Shown piece after piece: positions 27,109-33,230 of a stretch of DNA of 33,547 bases. The DNA lies in the NCBI GenBank assembly GCA_900321995.1, contig ONYG01000013.1, positions 1 to 33,547 of the forward strand, in the 5' to 3' direction. Below the pieces are notes generated by a model. It made no database searches. It was not told the DNA's origin and saw only the letters and a list, made by a program, of their open reading frames with translations. Both the position numbers and the translations under genes were made by a program. Each line of letters starts with the position of its first letter. Within the stretch, counting starts at the first letter, position 1. The stretch comes from an uncultured Methanobrevibacter sp. Lineage in GTDB: Archaea; Methanobacteriota; Methanobacteria; Methanobacteriales; Methanobacteriaceae.

Positions 27109-27267
27109 ATGTGTCCAGATAGTAATTGCAAAAAATGTGCTTTTCATAATAGTAACAATCCCCCTTATTATTGTGATTTTACTGATGAAAGCATAGTTAT
27201 CTGTAGTGTCAAAATGAAAAAGATGAAAGAACATAAAAAAGAAAAAATAAAGAGGTCCTTACGATGA
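27109..27267 (+). CDS. Small Cys-rich (zinc-ribbon-like) protein
   Basis: This 52-residue ORF has Cys at residues 2, 7, 10, 22 and 32 (MCPDSNCKKCAFH, then YYCDF, then ICSV), a possible zinc-binding knuckle, and a Lys/Arg-rich C-terminus (KMKKMKEHKKEKIKR). AGGG near 27094-27097 precedes ATG, and the stop overlaps the start of the endoisopeptidase gene as ATGA, which suggests coupling. No function was recognised; it might be a regulator or a partner of the lysis enzyme. Confidence 0.6.
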   Translation: MCPDSNCKKCAFHNSNNPPYYCDFTDESIVICSVKMKKMKEHKKEKIKRSLR

Positions 27268-28367
27268 AATTTAAAAAGAATCTCATAATCCAGGAAGCCA
27301 ATGAAATATTGGACTTCTGTAAAAAATATAAAAGATTGCCTAAAACATGCACGATTGGAAACAGCAACATTTCAATCTATAGCACAGCATACTTATTAAG
27401 CTTGCTGGTTCAAGACAACTTCAAGTCAGACAGCTATGATCTTGCCAGCCTTATCAAATACAATACTGATGAACATAATGACAAGATCAATGAAAAAGTA
27501 ATGAAACAGGATTACCTTGATATGACTAAGCGTTTTATCAATTATTCCAAAAACAATAAGAGAGTGCCGAGCACTATCCTTACGAAAACTAGCAAAACCA
27601 AGGTTAGCTTTGAACTGTTCACATTTTGCCTATGCAAAATCATAATGTTCTATAAGGAAAATAAGTACTTGCCTAACTATTGCACTTTTAATCCTTCAGA
27701 AATGACTAATGCTAAAACTTCAACAATAACCAGTAAAAAATCATCTTCCACATCTACATCAACCACCAAAAAAACAACAAACACTAACTCAAAATTGTTT
27801 GTATCATCACCCCACTACACTTCCTTTGGATGCAATGCTCTTGGCCAATGCACACCCTATTACTGTGGACCTCACAGCATACATCAAGCAATCCGAAAAT
27901 TCAACATCACAAAATACACTGAAAAACAGATTGCAGCATGGGCCGGAACAACCACCTCTGGAAGCAGCCATTCAGGAATCAACACTGCAATAGCGAAAAT
28001 AGCAAGCTTGACAGGCATCAAGCTAACTGTTCAATGGAAAAACTTCTCAGATATGGGAAGCACACAAGATGAAAGATTCAAGAATGTTGCAAAGATACTA
28101 TCCAATAAGAACAAGGCCATAATATGGCACATAGGTTACAGGAATGGAGGAAACACAACAACCGGAACAATCTTCGGCCATTATGAATGCATAGATAAGA
28201 TTAACATAGGAACAAAATATGTGCGTGCACTAAACAGCTTAGGAACTAAAAAGTCAGATGGATCATACACTGGAAAGTTACAGGACAGACCATATAAGAT
28301 CCAAAGCAATTTTGCAGCAACCACTCCTGGCAACCAAGCTGCATTATGTATAATAAGCAAAGGATGA
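27264..28367 (+). CDS. Pseudomurein endoisopeptidase (PeiW/PeiP-like endolysin)
   Basis: This 367-residue lytic enzyme cuts the peptide cross-links of pseudomurein and releases virions at the end of infection. Two N-terminal pseudomurein-binding repeats are visible: ~8-52 (EANEILDFCKKYKRLPKTC) and ~85-142 (MTKRFINYSKNNKRVPSTI, then MFYKENKYLPNYCTF). A Ser/Thr/Lys linker (150-177) leads to a papain-like C39/C71-type domain. The nucleophile is Cys201 in YYCGPHSIHQ, the His is His306 in GHYECIDK, and the third residue is likely Asp311 or Asn324 (RALNSLG). The order and motifs match the enzymes of psi-M-type viruses of Methanothermobacter and Methanobrevibacter proviruses. No signal peptide is present, so release needs the holin-like protein at 28579. 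Confidence 0.9.
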   Translation: MKFKKNLIIQEANEILDFCKKYKRLPKTCTIGNSNISIYSTAYLLSLLVQDNFKSDSYDLASLIKYNTDEHNDKINEKVMKQDYLDMTKRFINYSKNNKRVPSTILTKTSKTKVSFELFTFCLCKIIMFYKENKYLPNYCTFNPSEMTNAKTSTITSKKSSSTSTSTTKKTTNTNSKLFVSSPHYTSFGCNALGQCTPYYCGPHSIHQAIRKFNITKYTEKQIAAWAGTTTSGSSHSGINTAIAKIASLTGIKLTVQWKNFSDMGSTQDERFKNVAKILSNKNKAIIWHIGYRNGGNTTTGTIFGHYECIDKINIGTKYVRALNSLGTKKSDGSYTGKLQDRPYKIQSNFAATTPGNQAALCIISKG

Positions 28368-28975: not shown

Positions 28976-29020
28976 GGCCAACTTATGATTAACAATTTCA
29001 TAGGTTGGCCTTTTTTATTT
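28976..29020 (+). terminator. Strong hairpin followed by T-run
   Basis: A 13-bp stem, GGCCAACTTATGA (28976-28988) with TCATAGGTTGGCC (28998-29010), has one G-T wobble and a 9-base loop, and is followed by TTTTTTATTTT. This is the layout of a bacterial intrinsic terminator, unusual for an archaeal genome. It ends the late structural/lysis block and lies 12 bases ahead of the ribosome-binding site (29022-29028) of the next gene. Confidence 0.85.
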
Positions 29021-29034
29021 TAAGGAGACCCACT

Positions 29035-30849
29035 ATGATGGTTTCAGAGGAAAGAATCAGAACTAATCATATGTTGATGGATGAGCTGGACATGTGGGAG
29101 GAGTTCACTGTCAAGGCAATCAATGACGAATGGACACTAAGATACTATACTCTTCTGATGAACCTATTAAATAGTCAAGTTGATGAGGCTATCAAATGGC
29201 TGGATACTGAAGAAGCACAAGAATACTATTACGATGAAGCACAATACCAATACCAACTATTCAAAGCATTAGAAGACCAATGGGACGAAATCCTAGAAAA
29301 CAAGTATCCAAGTGTAGAAGCATTACTACAAGAAGTGTACAATAGAGGAAAAGCCAAAGGCTATGCCGACATGCGAGAACACATCCGATTCACAGACACA
29401 GACAAGAGGGCCTTACAATTTGTAAGAGATTATAATTTTGATTTAATACAAAATATTGATTATGATACTAGAAATCATATTAAAAACATTATCACATCTG
29501 CTGTGATAAGCGGTGAAAATCCAAGGAAAGTTTCACCAAAAATAAAAGACACACTAAACACACGACTAGAAGGATCCACATTCACACCCACACAAAGAGC
29601 AGTAATGATAGCTCGGACAGAAATCTCACGTACACAAAATACAGGAATCCTACAATCCTATGTAAACGAAGGATACACCGAAGTCAAAATACTAACCGCA
29701 GAAGACAGCAATGTCTGCTACACATGCCTAACCTATGCATACGAATTCAACAAGGATAGTCCAGTAATCTATGAGAATCATGGAGAAGAAAAAATCCATA
29801 ATATAATTGAATTAATTAAAGGAGGACGATTCCCCCCATTCCACCCCAACTGCAGATGCACCTATACAAGCGTATGGGAAACAAAGGGAGAACCACCTAA
29901 AGAGCAATCAGTTGTGAAATTAGTTAGCCAAACAGCTTATGATAAATTAAAAGAGTCTAAATATATCAAACAAATTCGCAAGAAAACATCAACTAGAGCA
30001 ACACCAGATGAAGTTGCTAAAAAATATAATATGGATTATTATGTTGATGATGATGGCAATAATATATTCTATGATAAAGAAAACAAAACAAAAATAGTTA
30101 TTGATAAATGGTACATTGAAAATAAATCTTTCAGAAATAATTTCATAGATTTCACTAATTCTGGCAAATCTCGTTATGATTTAGAAGAAATAATGATGAT
30201 TTATAATAATGCTCCAAAAATATATAAACAAGCTCCTAATGAAATTGTATTTATGAAACCGCCTAAAGGAAGAAATTATAAAAATACTCCTGGTGAAACA
30301 TTAGGTTTTGATTCAGATTTATTTTTGGTAAATAAAATAATGATTTACCCTCTTGCATTTAGAACGAATAGGTTGCATAGAGGTAATTTCGCTCAAACAT
30401 TATATCATGAAATGGGACATTGTATAAATAATAGGATGGTGAATATAAAGCAACTTCATGCATTAAGAAATATTGATCAATATTCTGAAGAGGAGTTAAG
30501 AAAAGTATTTAATGAAGGTCCACTATATATATTATCACAAGGAGAGAAATTTTCTATTTCTATAAGAGAGGATGAAGTATTCCAGAGGGAAAATCATCTT
30601 CCTATAGAACAATCTTCATGGTATGGGAATGAAAATGAATTTGAGAGTTTAGCTGAACTTTTGAGCATGTTTGCTTTTAATAATTTGGAAGATAAAACAA
30701 TGGCAATAATGCAAACTAGCTCTGGTGAAATGATTTCATTTGAGGAATGGAAAAAACGAAATCCTTACAAATTTAAGTGCATATCTGAAGAAATGGAAAA
30801 AATTGAAGAAATTGGACTTAATTTAAAATATTGGGGTTTGAGTTTATGA
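29035..30849 (+). CDS. MuF-type minor head protein fused to a C-terminal HExxH metallopeptidase domain (predicted polymorphic toxin)
   Basis: This is a 604-residue protein. Residues ~1-280 are a MuF / SPP1 gp7-type minor head protein: helical N-terminus, MIARTEISRTQNTG (191-204), a Cys pair VCYTC (227-231) and the hallmark FHPNCRC (269-275). After a linker (~285-325) the C-terminus changes to an unrelated domain with YHEMGHCINNR (HExxH, His458/Glu459/His462) and a likely third zinc ligand in NEFESLAELLSMF (Glu537 or Glu541), as in zincin peptidases. MuF proteins with variable C-terminal toxins are known from temperate phages. Here the gene lies after lysis genes rather than next to the portal, and a small ORF overlaps its stop. 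ATG 29035 has AAGGAGA at 29022-29028; the open frame upstream to TTG 29005 is not the start. Confidence 0.75.
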   Translation: MMVSEERIRTNHMLMDELDMWEEFTVKAINDEWTLRYYTLLMNLLNSQVDEAIKWLDTEEAQEYYYDEAQYQYQLFKALEDQWDEILENKYPSVEALLQEVYNRGKAKGYADMREHIRFTDTDKRALQFVRDYNFDLIQNIDYDTRNHIKNIITSAVISGENPRKVSPKIKDTLNTRLEGSTFTPTQRAVMIARTEISRTQNTGILQSYVNEGYTEVKILTAEDSNVCYTCLTYAYEFNKDSPVIYENHGEEKIHNIIELIKGGRFPPFHPNCRCTYTSVWETKGEPPKEQSVVKLVSQTAYDKLKESKYIKQIRKKTSTRATPDEVAKKYNMDYYVDDDGNNIFYDKENKTKIVIDKWYIENKSFRNNFIDFTNSGKSRYDLEEIMMIYNNAPKIYKQAPNEIVFMKPPKGRNYKNTPGETLGFDSDLFLVNKIMIYPLAFRTNRLHRGNFAQTLYHEMGHCINNRMVNIKQLHALRNIDQYSEEELRKVFNEGPLYILSQGEKFSISIREDEVFQRENHLPIEQSSWYGNENEFESLAELLSMFAFNNLEDKTMAIMQTSSGEMISFEEWKKRNPYKFKCISEEMEKIEEIGLNLKYWGLSL

Positions 30850-31145
30850 TAAGTGATAATCAGATAACAATTGAAGGGTTGTTAAAAAAATTTGATATAG
30901 ATTTGAATCTGCCTATTTTCATATTAACTCGTAAGGTCAATGATATTTATACTAAATGTAAGATAAAACATGATCTTGAGGGTTTTGATTATTATTATGA
31001 ACTAAAATCTAAAGATAAAAAACATACTGTTATTCTTACTCCTGAAGTTGAAGATGGTTACTTTTTTCAGTATGCTCAGCGTAGTAGAAGAGATCCCATT
31101 TGTGGGGTAAAATATGGATATTATGGAGGGATTAGTCACATATAG
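30846..31145 (+). CDS. Predicted immunity protein for the MuF-metallopeptidase
   Basis: This 99-residue protein starts in an ATGA overlap with the stop of the MuF-type gene, the arrangement expected of toxin and immunity. It is alpha/beta with aromatic-rich strands (ISDNQITIEGLLKKFDI; LEGFDYYYELKSKDKKHTVI; GYFFQYAQRSRRDPICGV) and no signal peptide, membrane segment or catalytic motif. It shares the A/T-rich composition of the toxin domain rather than that of the MuF domain. No family was recognised; the immunity role is inferred only from coupling and context. Confidence 0.5.
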   Translation: MISDNQITIEGLLKKFDIDLNLPIFILTRKVNDIYTKCKIKHDLEGFDYYYELKSKDKKHTVILTPEVEDGYFFQYAQRSRRDPICGVKYGYYGGISHI

Positions 31146-31160
31146 TTAATTCCAGTATGG

Positions 31161-31197
31161 GTTTTTAATATTCTTTTATTTTTTCTTTTTTTATTAG
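31161..31197 (+). terminator. T-rich terminator after the immunity-like gene
   Basis: Repeated T-runs (TTTTTATT, TTTTATTTTTTC, TTTTTTTATT) begin just after the stop at 31145. They fit archaeal T-run termination and isolate the accessory genes that follow. No stem of note was seen. Confidence 0.5.
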
Positions 31198-31254: not shown

Positions 31255-31326
31255 TTTATATATGGCCTAAACCATAATGATATATACTTGACACATATTA
31301 ATGTTACACATACACGACTTTATACA
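31255..31326 (+). promoter_or_regulatory. Candidate promoter region for the Ntn-hydrolase-like gene
   Basis: Two TATA-like elements occur: TTTATATA at 31255-31262 and TTTATACA at 31319-31326. The second would place the transcription start near 31347, about 20 bases before ATG 31367, and the first near 31283. A small palindrome, ATGG-CCTAAA-CCAT (31262-31275), sits just after the upstream box. The gene thus probably has its own promoter, separate from the late operon. Confidence 0.45.
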
Positions 31327-31366: not shown

Positions 31367-32572
31367 ATGACATCTGAAATTTTGATTCTAACTCCAAGTG
31401 CAGTTGCTTTAGCGGCTGATAGTGCAGTAACTGTTGGTAATAAAAAAACATATAATGGTGTAAATAAATTATTTATGTTATCAAATAATCCACCTATGGG
31501 GATAATGACTTATAATCTTTCACATTTTTCAAATGTTCCTTTAGAAACTATTATTAAAGAATTTAGATTAGAAATCAAAGAGGAAGAATTAAACACTGTA
31601 GAAGAGTTTAAAGATAAATTTAAAGAATATTTAGAAAAATTAATTAAAGATTCTTTACATTCTTATTCTATTGAAGAGCAATTAGACGATTTTATTAAAC
31701 AGATTAAAATTGAATCACAACATATGGAATTTTCAATATTTGAATCTATTGTTAAAAATGTTATTAATAATGTAAATTTTGATGATTTAACTGATTATTC
31801 AGAGATAATTACAAATACTTTGAACATTAATGAAACTAAATTAAATGAATTGATTCCTAATGAAATTAATGGAAATCAAAGAAAAGACTTTTTAAAAGAT
31901 TTAAAAAAATTTTTTGTATATAACATATATATTGAACCTTTTACAGGTATTGTTATTGCAGGATTTAATAAAGATAGATTGTTTCCATCATACATTGAAT
32001 TCAATATCACTTATCTATTTGATGATAATTTCATTTTAAAAGAGATAAAACATTTGGATATAATAGGGAATTTGGTTCATGTAAGACCTCTTGCTCAAGA
32101 TGATGTAATAAATACATTTCTAACAAGTATTGATAAAGGCACTGAATTTAAATTAACAAAGTATGTTTATAAATTTTATGAGGATTATACTAACAATCTT
32201 AAAGAAGCTATAAATAGCAATTCTCATCTTGATTCTAATGAAAAAACCAAATTTTTAAATGAAATCTCAAAAATTGAGTCTGCAAATAAAAATTTAGGGC
32301 TTTTATTTGAAGAATTTATTAATCAACTAAAAGATGAGCATGCTAATCACTTATTGGATTCAATTTCAGCATTACCTAAAGAGGAGTTAAGTAATTTAGC
32401 GGAATCATTAATAAATATCACATCACTTAAACGAAAAATAGGATCAGATTTAGAAACTGTTGGTGGGCCAGTTGATGTTGCTATTATAACTAAAGGGGAT
32501 GGTTTCATTTGGACAAAGAGAAAACATTATTTTGATGGTAATTTAAATCCACACTTTTTTAAACGAGGTTGA
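31367..32572 (+). CDS. Proteasome beta-like Ntn-hydrolase candidate with large helical insertion
   Basis: This is a 401-residue protein. If the initiator Met is removed, the new N-terminus is Thr, and residues then fall as in the proteasome beta subunit: Thr1, Asp17 (in LAADSAVT) and Lys33 (in NKLFML). The stretch aligns without a gap to the archaeal beta subunit pattern (T1 ... A-x-x-D/E17 ... T21 ... K33-L-F). PMGIMTYNLSHFSNVPLET then resembles the next strand and helix. Residues ~80-345 are mostly charged helices, far longer than in proteasome subunits, and the end (TVGGPVDVAIITKGDGFIWT) returns to strands. It is not a propeptide-type proenzyme. It is monocistronic and outside the structural block, which suggests cargo, possibly host-modifying or defensive. 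The function is not established. Confidence 0.55.
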   Translation: MTSEILILTPSAVALAADSAVTVGNKKTYNGVNKLFMLSNNPPMGIMTYNLSHFSNVPLETIIKEFRLEIKEEELNTVEEFKDKFKEYLEKLIKDSLHSYSIEEQLDDFIKQIKIESQHMEFSIFESIVKNVINNVNFDDLTDYSEIITNTLNINETKLNELIPNEINGNQRKDFLKDLKKFFVYNIYIEPFTGIVIAGFNKDRLFPSYIEFNITYLFDDNFILKEIKHLDIIGNLVHVRPLAQDDVINTFLTSIDKGTEFKLTKYVYKFYEDYTNNLKEAINSNSHLDSNEKTKFLNEISKIESANKNLGLLFEEFINQLKDEHANHLLDSISALPKEELSNLAESLINITSLKRKIGSDLETVGGPVDVAIITKGDGFIWTKRKHYFDGNLNPHFFKRG

Positions 32573-32625
32573 TTCATAAAATTTATTAGTAAATTTAAAT
32601 AAATTATTTGTAAGGAGGAGTATTA

Positions 32626-32919
32626 ATGAAAAGACTATTATTTGCTCGAAACAATATTCTTGTTGAAGAGACTCCACAATTGCCCTTGAATCTTGGTGAA
32701 ATTCAAGCACAAAAAGATCTTAATCAGTTTAAAGAAAATCTAATCAATGCTTTTAATGATGATTCTTTTGTAGATGAAACCACTAGTGAATTAGGGAGTA
32801 TAAATAATAATGATTCTGATAACTGCGATGAATATTATGATTTTTTAGATGAGTTAGAAAAAATTCATGCTAAAGTTGATTCTGGCGACTTAAGTGATTT
32901 TACCGAGTTAAAATTATGA
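32626..32919 (+). CDS. Putative antitoxin partner of the RelE-type toxin
   Basis: This 97-residue protein, preceded by AAGGAGG (32612-32618), overlaps the toxin gene as ATGA. It has a short N-terminal part (LLFARNNILVEETPQLPLNL), a helical middle (AQKDLNQFKENLINAFNDDSF) and a very acidic Ser/Asn-rich C-terminus. Gene order and overlap fit an antitoxin, but I see no clear ribbon-helix-helix, AbrB or Xre DNA-binding motif. It could neutralise the toxin through the acidic tail only. A TATA-like AATTTAAATAAATT sits upstream near 32590-32605. Confidence 0.6.
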   Translation: MKRLLFARNNILVEETPQLPLNLGEIQAQKDLNQFKENLINAFNDDSFVDETTSELGSINNNDSDNCDEYYDFLDELEKIHAKVDSGDLSDFTELKL

Positions 32920-33230
32920 GTAATTATAAAGTACAAGTTGACAATTCTTGTCTAAATTTTCTTAAGGGTTTGGAAAAATATAATAATTCTCTTCATAGTC
33001 AAATTTGTGACACTATTAAAGAAATTTGTTCTAACCCATTTAAAAGCAAATATAAAAAATTGGAAGAAAGTGAAAGAGATTTTAGAGCTCGTTCAGGAAA
33101 TTATCGGATTGTATACTTTGTTAGTAATGGCACTGTTTTTATAACTAAAATTGGGCAGCGAAAAAATGTTTATAAAATGCCTCCTGGTTGCCCTAAATTA
33201 AGTAAGAAAAAATTAATGAGTCTTCATTAG
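32916..33230 (+). CDS. RelE/ParE-family toxin
   Basis: This 104-residue protein shows the family's compact core: N-terminal helices (SCLNFLKGLEKYNNSLHSQI), then YKKLEESERDFRARSGNYRIVYFV (residues 46-69, with basic residues Lys/Arg at 47-48, 54, 57, 59 and 64), then VFITKIGQRKNVYK (74-87). Most RelE relatives have IGHRxxVY; here the His is Gln81. It is likely an mRNA interferase or gyrase poison. The partner gene precedes it with a four-base overlap, completing a type II-like module that could stabilise the provirus. Confidence 0.8.
   Translation: MSNYKVQVDNSCLNFLKGLEKYNNSLHSQICDTIKEICSNPFKSKYKKLEESERDFRARSGNYRIVYFVSNGTVFITKIGQRKNVYKMPPGCPKLSKKKLMSLH

What the first reader, a model, noticed from the sequence alone, without database searches (positions are those of the whole stretch)
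31367..32572. Proteasome beta-like catalytic spacing (Thr1-Asp17-Lys33) in a virus cargo gene
After Met removal the protein starts with Thr, and Asp and Lys then sit exactly at positions 17 and 33, with T21 and K33-L-F also matching the archaeal proteasome beta pattern in an ungapped alignment. This is the Ntn-hydrolase catalytic arrangement. Unlike true beta subunits there is no propeptide, and a ~265-residue charged helical insertion follows the first hairpins. The protein has its own promoter and sits in the accessory region. A virus-borne Ntn-hydrolase could be a host-takeover protease, a proteasome decoy or a defence effector. I know of no described function for such a gene in methanogen viruses.
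Basis: partly seen in the sequence, partly recalled or inferred. Interest (0 to 1): 0.77.

Follow-up and report, generated by a model that had tools for sequence, protein, structure and literature searches.

The report
Viral proteasome-like enzyme beside toxin-antitoxin genes
A virus of a methane-making archaeon carries a real relative of the proteasome's cutting subunit, a member of a family first described in 2021; this family travels on mobile elements with a small, previously unnoticed partner gene, and in this virus that partner appears to be joined to the antitoxin of a toxin-antitoxin pair.

Summary
ORF 31367-32572 has Thr2, Asp18 and Lys34; in 139 non-redundant homologues from bacteria, archaea and phages they are T/S 139, D 139 and K 139. 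A start codon lies directly before the Thr in 137 of 138. The model (pLDDT 91) matches 20S proteasome beta subunits and Anbu.

It is not a new family. It fits PMI-4, described in 2021 with phage and euryarchaeal members and no known function. The '265-residue insertion' is two helical inserts with core strands between them.

New here: PMI-4 genes are followed by an overlooked ~55-aa gene (67 of 114 loci against 35 of 835 control genes; pN/pS about 0.3). In the window and one other Methanobrevibacter locus the next ORF shares a 44-residue N-terminal module but has different antitoxin-like C-termini, each overlapping a different RelE/ParE-type toxin. A shorter proteasome homologue in the same archaeal family heads the same gene order.

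Best reading: a mobile conflict cassette in which the N-terminal-Thr enzyme acts on its small partner, here gating a toxin. Active site, fold and partner gene are well supported; the toxin link is suggestive; the function is inferred.

The parts
31367..32572 (+). PMI-4-type proteasome homologue (N-terminal-Thr Ntn-hydrolase), 401 aa
   Evidence: (phrog_5990 full length, E 2.3e-83)
31370..31372 (+). Thr2 codon: predicted nucleophile after removal of the initiator Met
   Evidence: T 138/139, S 1/139; start codon directly before it in 137/138 homologues; aligns to mature Thr1 of T. acidophilum proteasome beta
31418..31420 (+). Asp18 codon (proteasome Asp17 equivalent)
   Evidence: 139/139
31466..31468 (+). 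Lys34 codon (proteasome Lys33 equivalent)
   Evidence: 139/139
31652..31942 (+). Helical insert 1 (residues 96-192), after H1/H2
   Evidence: AF2 secondary structure; insert lengths across the family
32219..32374 (+). Helical insert 2 (about residues 285-336), between H3 and H4
32453..32482 (+). ETVGGPVDVA signature; aligns to the SGG-iDVAVI strand of proteasome beta
31172..31193 (+). T-rich stretch upstream, candidate terminator of the preceding transcription unit
   Evidence: sequence; inference
31255..31262 (+). TTTATATA, candidate archaeal TATA box for the cassette
   Evidence: 4 in the window against 3.85 expected, so weak
32612..32619 (+). AAGGAGGA ribosome-binding site of the next gene
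   Evidence: sequence
32626..32919 (+). 97-aa ORF: PMI-4-linked N-terminal module (residues 1-44) plus antitoxin-like C-terminus (about residues 66-97)
   Evidence: N-module 64% identical over 44 aa to the gene after PMI-4 in L028; C-terminus matches a G006 antitoxin-like ORF whose contig shows no PMI-4
32916..33230 (+). ParE/RelE-type toxin, 104 aa, overlapping the ORF above by 4 bp
   Evidence: PF05016 E 2.6e-4, 21.9 bits, just under the 23-bit cut-off; 74% identical to the toxin paired with the G006 antitoxin

Best explanation
The gene encodes a proteasome-like Ntn-hydrolase of the PMI-4 subfamily. Methionine aminopeptidase exposes Thr2 as nucleophile and alpha-amine base, and Lys34 and Asp18 complete the site (inferred from conservation and model). 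It is carried as a stand-alone, separately transcribed cargo cassette on viruses, satellites and plasmids and in bacterial defence-type neighbourhoods. The cassette normally has a second gene, a small helical protein encoded right at or over the stop codon of the hydrolase. I propose that this small protein is the cognate target, inhibitor or adaptor of the hydrolase, and that the pair works in conflict between mobile elements (superinfection exclusion, abortive infection or addiction). In this virus the partner position is taken by a protein whose N-terminal module is joined to an antitoxin-like C-terminus for a ParE-type toxin. The specific proposal is that the hydrolase cleaves or hands over the antitoxin through this module and so decides when the toxin is free. 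Well supported: active-site conservation, predicted fold, partner gene in bacteria, cargo position. Suggestive: the antitoxin fusion. Inferred: cleavage of the partner, toxin gating, antiviral role.
For: Active site: T/S 139, D 139 and K 139 of 139. Thr is at position 2, with the start codon directly before it in 137/138 and no upstream ATG in 126/138. Fold: pLDDT 91, pTM 0.87; best PDB hits are all 20S proteasome subunits or Anbu, probability up to 1.00, TM to target up to 0.64. A profile search of 177,635 PDB sequences puts archaeal proteasome beta first, with Thr1 on Thr2. Cargo: Streptococcus satellites and prophages near the right end; Providencia, E. coli and Stenotrophomonas phages beside Q or lysis genes; promoter-isolated in 34/45 viral loci against 107/287 control genes. 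Patchy: 9/5426 E. coli genomes by DNA search, 6/299 genomes of one bacterial family. Defence neighbours: 91 PADLOC families near PMI-4 against 23 in control stretches. Partner gene: 67/114 against 35/835 controls; pN<pS in 36/36 pairs, median ratio 0.32. Toxin link: shared N-module on two different antitoxin/toxin pairs, window and L028, and a third protease-antitoxin-toxin array headed by a shorter proteasome homologue, L012/L013.
Against: No biochemistry. No homologue has a tested defence role; none of the seven PMI-4 proteins scanned matches a PADLOC model convincingly, and phrog_5990 has no function. The window's 97-aa ORF is not significantly similar to the bacterial partner family by HMM (35/200 shuffles score as high; core-only model also not); only the motif G-x3-A-x3-L links them (chance about 0.02). 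No toxin was looked for systematically after the bacterial partner ORFs, and those inspected show none, so toxin gating may be a local archaeal variant. The 97-aa ORF could simply be the antitoxin of an independent toxin-antitoxin pair that landed in the same cargo slot. PADLOC counts are of families, not proteins, and come from only 15 loci.
Confidence: 0.4

Rival explanations
1. It is an ordinary viral accessory protease with no tie to the neighbouring toxin-antitoxin pair: a stand-alone PMI-4 hydrolase (with or without the small partner) that cuts host or rival-phage proteins, while the ParE-type pair next door is a separate addiction module.
For: Bacterial PMI-4 cassettes inspected have the small partner and no evident toxin. 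The same toxin and a similar antitoxin C-terminus occur in G006 with no PMI-4 seen on that contig. Phage cargo slots often collect unrelated genes.
Against: The N-terminal 44 residues of the window's ORF were found only beside PMI-4 (window and L028) and on two different antitoxin-like C-termini. A third proteasome homologue also heads a protease-antitoxin-toxin array.
Confidence: 0.3
2. It is a protein ligase or transpeptidase like archaeal connectase, joining the small partner or another peptide to a target, rather than a protease.
For: Connectase is a proteasome-like, propeptide-free, monomeric N-terminal-Thr enzyme of methanogens (PMC8665760). A small dedicated partner gene would suit a ligation substrate. 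PMI-4 inserts are predicted to hinder ring assembly (PMC8665760).
Against: Connectase's signature insert lies between S3 and S4; here K34 to P58 is exactly 25 residues in all 82 family members aligned, so there is no such insert.
Confidence: 0.12
3. It is a decoy or inhibitor that poisons the host's own proteasome by mimicking a beta subunit.
For: The host has its own proteasome genes (two PF00227 matches in G000), and the viral protein has a beta-like fold.
Against: Many hosts carrying PMI-4 are bacteria such as streptococci, E. coli and rhizobia, which lack a 20S proteasome (general knowledge), and the catalytic residues are kept in nearly every member, which a decoy would not need.
Confidence: 0.04
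4. PMI-4 is the protease arm of a bacterial ubiquitin-like conjugation pathway.
For: PMI-4 lies within a few kb of multi-ubiquitin-like, E1 (ThiF) and DUF6527 genes in five loci: L072, L096, L100 and two plasmids. In L100 all are co-directional.
Against: Of 70 PMI-4 genomes tested only 6 have Multi_ubiq at all. In one bacterial family 30/299 have Multi_ubiq and 6/299 PMI-4, but only the seed genome has both. Best seen as co-location in defence islands.
Confidence: 0.05

Closest known systems
PMI-4, proteasome homolog with multiple insertions 4 (Fuchs, Alva and Lupas 2021, PMC8665760)
   Same: Proteasome-like core with Thr/Asp/Lys; long insert after H1/H2 and another between H3 and H4; no propeptide; found in many bacterial phyla, Euryarchaeota and phages
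   Different: That paper reports no informative genomic context; here a small partner gene, cargo slots and an antitoxin fusion are added. The reference sequence HDY66466.1 was not available for direct comparison, and PMI-3 shares the same insert pattern
20S proteasome beta subunit (archaeal)
   Same: Fold, catalytic Thr/Lys/Asp, C-terminal GG-x-iDVAVI strand
   Different: No propeptide, two large inserts, no alpha subunit or AAA+ partner beside it, not recognised by Pfam's Proteasome model
Anbu and HslV
   Same: Proteasome-like subunits in bacteria; Anbu among the best structural hits
   Different: No HslU or other conserved large partner gene beside it; these inserts are not described for those families
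Connectase (archaeal protein ligase)
   Same: Propeptide-free N-terminal-Thr proteasome relative of methanogens with helical insertions
   Different: Insert sits at S3/S4 there, and after H2 and between H3 and H4 here; activity unknown here
RelE/ParE type II toxin-antitoxin modules
   Same: Overlapping antitoxin-like ORF and ParE-like toxin directly after PMI-4
   Different: The antitoxin-like protein carries an extra N-terminal module shared with another PMI-4-linked ORF, and a proteasome-like gene heads the array

Membership tests
Proteasome-like Ntn-hydrolases | Catalytic Thr/Ser1, Asp17, Lys33 equivalents conserved | tested here: met
   T/S 139, D 139, K 139 of 139
Proteasome-like Ntn-hydrolases | Ntn alpha-beta-beta-alpha sandwich like proteasome beta | tested here: met
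   AF2 pLDDT 91; Foldseek hits all proteasome/Anbu, probability up to 1.00, TM to target up to 0.64; a model, not a solved structure
Proteasome-like Ntn-hydrolases | Free N-terminal nucleophile | tested here: inconclusive
   Start codon directly before Thr in 137/138; Met removal itself not observed
Proteasome-like Ntn-hydrolases | Hydrolase or ligase activity | not testable with these tools
   Needs protein
Pfam PF00227 Proteasome | Score above curated cut-off | tested here: not met
   No PF00227 hit for the window protein up to E 1; 10 of 82 relatives match at E up to 0.1, best 2.4e-4
PMI-4 (Fuchs 2021) | Inserts after H1/H2 and between H3/H4, none between S3 and S4 | tested here: met
   PMI-3 shares this pattern
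PMI-4 (Fuchs 2021) | Broad bacterial, euryarchaeal and phage distribution | tested here: met
PMI-4 (Fuchs 2021) | Clusters with the published PMI-4 sequences | not testable with these tools
   Published alignment and HDY66466.1 not in the libraries at hand
Connectase | Two-helix insert between S3 and S4 | tested here: not met
   K34-P58 always 25 residues
Type II toxin-antitoxin (ParE/RelE) | Small toxin of the ParE family with overlapping upstream antitoxin | tested here: inconclusive
   PF05016 E 2.6e-4, 21.9 bits against cut-off 23; homologous pair in G006
Known anti-phage defence systems (PADLOC) | Match to a defence model | tested here: not met
   Best hits E 0.0061-0.17, chance level, in 7 PMI-4 proteins

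The most novel reading that the evidence does not exclude
A proteasome-family hydrolase that gates a toxin: PMI-4 enzymes come with a dedicated small partner protein, and in methanogen elements that partner module is fused to antitoxins, giving a three-gene protease-antitoxin-toxin conflict system carried by archaeal viruses and mobile elements.
Probability: 0.3. Interest if true: 0.85.

Novelty: new variant of a known kind. Interest (0 to 1): 0.62.

Why it matters
The 2021 survey that found PMI-4 had no clue to its function and reported no useful genomic context. A conserved small partner gene, present across bacteria and archaea, gives a concrete handle: it is the obvious candidate substrate, inhibitor or adaptor. 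If the archaeal fusions to antitoxins hold up, they would show proteasome relatives used as switches for toxins in virus-host conflict, in a group of viruses where few conflict genes are understood. Homologues also lie in prophages of E. coli, so the idea is directly testable in laboratory strains.

Tried and rejected
Single-sequence scan of viral contigs found nothing; only the alignment query did. Pfam, NCBIfam and PADLOC gave nothing useful for the single protein. phmmer with the single sequence found no PDB relative, while the profile did. AAA+ or HslU-type partner: no conserved partner among larger neighbours; the recurring neighbour families are mostly prophage-type genes. Ubiquitin-like pathway link: real in a few loci, rejected as general. 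Proteasome decoy: rejected because many hosts lack a 20S proteasome. Homology of the window's 97-aa ORF to the bacterial partner family: HMM test not significant, kept only as suggestive. Two papers on phage-borne defence were checked for proteasome-like proteins and the words do not occur.

Full report
WHAT IS THERE. The window is one whole contig of a draft genome (G000:C98) whose closest relatives by this gene include records titled Methanobrevibacter. It carries an SU10-type capsid protein, a tape measure, a baseplate J protein, a pseudomurein-binding/endopeptidase gene (27264-28367), a MuF-type head protein (29005-30849), the ORF, and a ParE-type toxin module (32626-33230). So it is a tailed virus or provirus with the ORF in the region after the lysis gene. 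The host has its own proteasome genes.

IS THE ACTIVE SITE REAL. Yes, as far as sequence can show. A 13-member alignment spanning archaea, streptococcal satellites and Gram-negative phages has T2, D18 and K34 invariant at 25-47% identity. In 139 non-redundant relatives Thr2 is 138 T and 1 S, Asp18 139/139, Lys34 139/139, and Gly199 is also invariant. The Thr codon directly follows a start codon in 137 of 138, and 126 of 138 have no other in-frame upstream ATG. This means a free N-terminal Thr after ordinary Met removal and no propeptide. The literal 1-17-33 numbering is partly luck, because the Thr-Lys distance varies from 32 to 41 in the family.

FOLD. AlphaFold2 with 82 relatives gives pLDDT 91 and pTM 0.87. 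Foldseek against the PDB returns 48 hits at E<=0.001, all proteasome subunits or Anbu, probability up to 1.00 and TM normalised to the target up to 0.64. Independently, a sequence profile ranks Thermoplasma proteasome beta first of 177,635 PDB sequences, with mature Thr1 on Thr2 and SGGMIDVAVITRKDGYV on VGGPIDVAVISKGDGFI. The strand order shows two inserts, after H1/H2 (about residues 96-192) and between H3 and H4 (about 285-336), around intact core strands.

NAME. Fuchs, Alva and Lupas (PMC8665760) described 22 proteasome homologue families. PMI-3 and PMI-4 have inserts at exactly these two sites. PMI-4 (501 sequences at 90% redundancy) is the one listed from many bacterial phyla, Euryarchaeota and phages. 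I assign the window protein to PMI-4 by architecture and distribution; the published sequences were not at hand, so PMI-3 is not strictly excluded. It also equals phrog_5990, 'unknown function'. The authors found no informative genomic context.

WHERE IT LIVES. In phage records it is the next-to-last gene of Streptococcus satellites, further from the end in another, and the last gene of a Streptococcus prophage after the lysin. In a Providencia phage it lies between a DNA methylase and the holin, in E. coli prophages between Q and a DNA methyltransferase on the opposite strand, and beside the lysis genes of a Stenotrophomonas phage on the opposite strand. These are classic cargo positions. In viral loci 34 of 45 copies are transcriptionally isolated (upstream neighbour on the other strand or at least 100 bp away) against 107 of 287 other genes. 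Carriage is sporadic: 9 of 5426 E. coli genomes by DNA similarity, 6 of 299 genomes of one bacterial family, 18 of 100 archaeal genomes when weaker homologues are included. In 15 bacterial genomes, genes near PMI-4 hit 91 PADLOC families (type I and IIG restriction, RmrA, an Ago nuclease) against 23 for control stretches of the same genomes, where motor-protein (MotA/MotB) and other generic-looking matches dominate. The counts are of families, the sample is small, and three of the 15 loci had been noticed before for their neighbours, so this is moderate support for defence-type neighbourhoods.

A SMALL PARTNER GENE. Right at the PMI-4 stop, often overlapping it, there is usually a 40-85-aa ORF. 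With a strict rule (ATG, Shine-Dalgarno, within 40 bp of the stop) 67 of 114 PMI-4 loci have it against 35 of 835 other genes. Forty of these align into one family reaching from Altarchaeum, Methanosarcinales and other archaea to many bacterial phyla and gamma-proteobacterial prophages. All 36 comparable pairs have pN<pS, median ratio 0.32. The consensus is a K-rich start, an S-x2-E-[FY]-x3-[FY][FL]-P-K segment and a helix with G-x3-A-x3-L. AlphaFold2 gives helices only, with moderate confidence (pLDDT 79.5, pTM 0.37). I found no description of this gene; the 2021 paper reports none.

THE WINDOW'S VERSION. Here the next ORF starts 53 bp downstream behind AAGGAGGA and is 97 aa long. Its first 44 residues are 64% identical to the ORF at the same 53-bp gap after the PMI-4 of another Methanobrevibacter element, L028, which also carries a recombinase-like gene two genes upstream (recombinase read from its sequence, not searched). 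Beyond that the two differ. The window's C-terminus matches an antitoxin-like ORF in G006, whose 4.9-kb contig shows no PMI-4, and its overlapping toxin is 74% identical to the G006 toxin. L028's C-terminus is a different antitoxin-like tail followed by a different RelE-like toxin (RelE-like from its sequence and a weak match to an annotated RelE toxin region in L026). A shorter proteasome homologue in G037 and G046 is also followed by overlapping antitoxin-like and ParE/RelE-like ORFs (the toxin ORFs match the window's at E 5e-4 and 2e-3). So three distinct protease-antitoxin-toxin arrangements exist in this archaeal family. The N-module contains G24-x3-A28-x3-L32-x2-FK like the bacterial partners (chance about 0.02), but HMM comparison is not significant. 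The identity of the N-module with the partner family is therefore suggestive only.

MECHANISM. Most likely (0.4): PMI-4 is an N-terminal-Thr hydrolase whose cognate small protein is its substrate, inhibitor or adaptor; the cassette serves conflict between mobile elements; in this virus the partner position is wired to an antitoxin, so the hydrolase can set toxin release. The inserts are at positions which the 2021 authors expected to hinder ring assembly, so a monomer or novel oligomer is likelier than a barrel (their inference). Steps shown or well supported: residues, predicted fold, Thr position, partner gene, cargo location. Steps inferred: cleavage, gating, antiviral benefit.

ALTERNATIVES. 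An unrelated toxin-antitoxin neighbour (0.3), a connectase-like ligase (0.12; its S3/S4 insert is absent), a host-proteasome decoy (0.04), and a ubiquitin-like pathway protease (0.05; close linkage in five loci but no genome-level co-occurrence).

VERDICT. Observation confirmed, Ntn-hydrolase reading supported, family already known, organisation new. The interest lies in the partner gene and the antitoxin link rather than in the proteasome similarity itself.

Noticed in passing
window 29005-30849 and 30831-31145: MuF-type protein whose first ~300 residues are about 76% identical to same-slot proteins in proviruses of G012 and G018 while the C-termini are unrelated (window HEMGH motif, G018 HELSH motif, G012 HNHP motif). 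It looks like a MuF polymorphic toxin with interchangeable, protease-like C-termini, and the overlapping 104-aa ORF may be its immunity gene.
   Followed up: partly
L202/L212 and L203/L213 (G012:C4, G018:C45): Related proviruses share head, tape-measure and lysis genes with the window (capsid up to 91% identical) and a second, head-module MuF gene, but carry no PMI-4 after the cargo MuF, so the slot is variable.
   Followed up: partly
L012 and L013 (G037, G046): A shorter proteasome homologue (283-287 aa) heads an overlapping three-gene array: hydrolase, 83-aa antitoxin-like ORF, 93-94-aa ParE/RelE-like toxin.
   Followed up: partly
L100 7451-11320, L072 10001-14161, L096, L218, L220: PMI-4 next to multi-ubiquitin-like, ThiF/E1 and DUF6527 genes; not general, and not seen in a word search of the 2006 survey of such operons.
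   Followed up: partly
L008 (G039:C2): Divergent PMI-4-like protein that keeps Thr, Asp and Lys but lacks the C-terminal VGGP-DVA signature and has no SD-preceded small ORF just downstream.
   Followed up: no
L005/L020 (G031:C88): A PMI-4 gene broken into two frames, possibly a pseudogene or an assembly error.
   Followed up: no
L111, L122, L151, L155 and similar prophage loci: Small partners of gamma-proteobacterial prophages end in a conserved aromatic tail (FSW, FNW, FFSR), which could be a docking tail.
   Followed up: no
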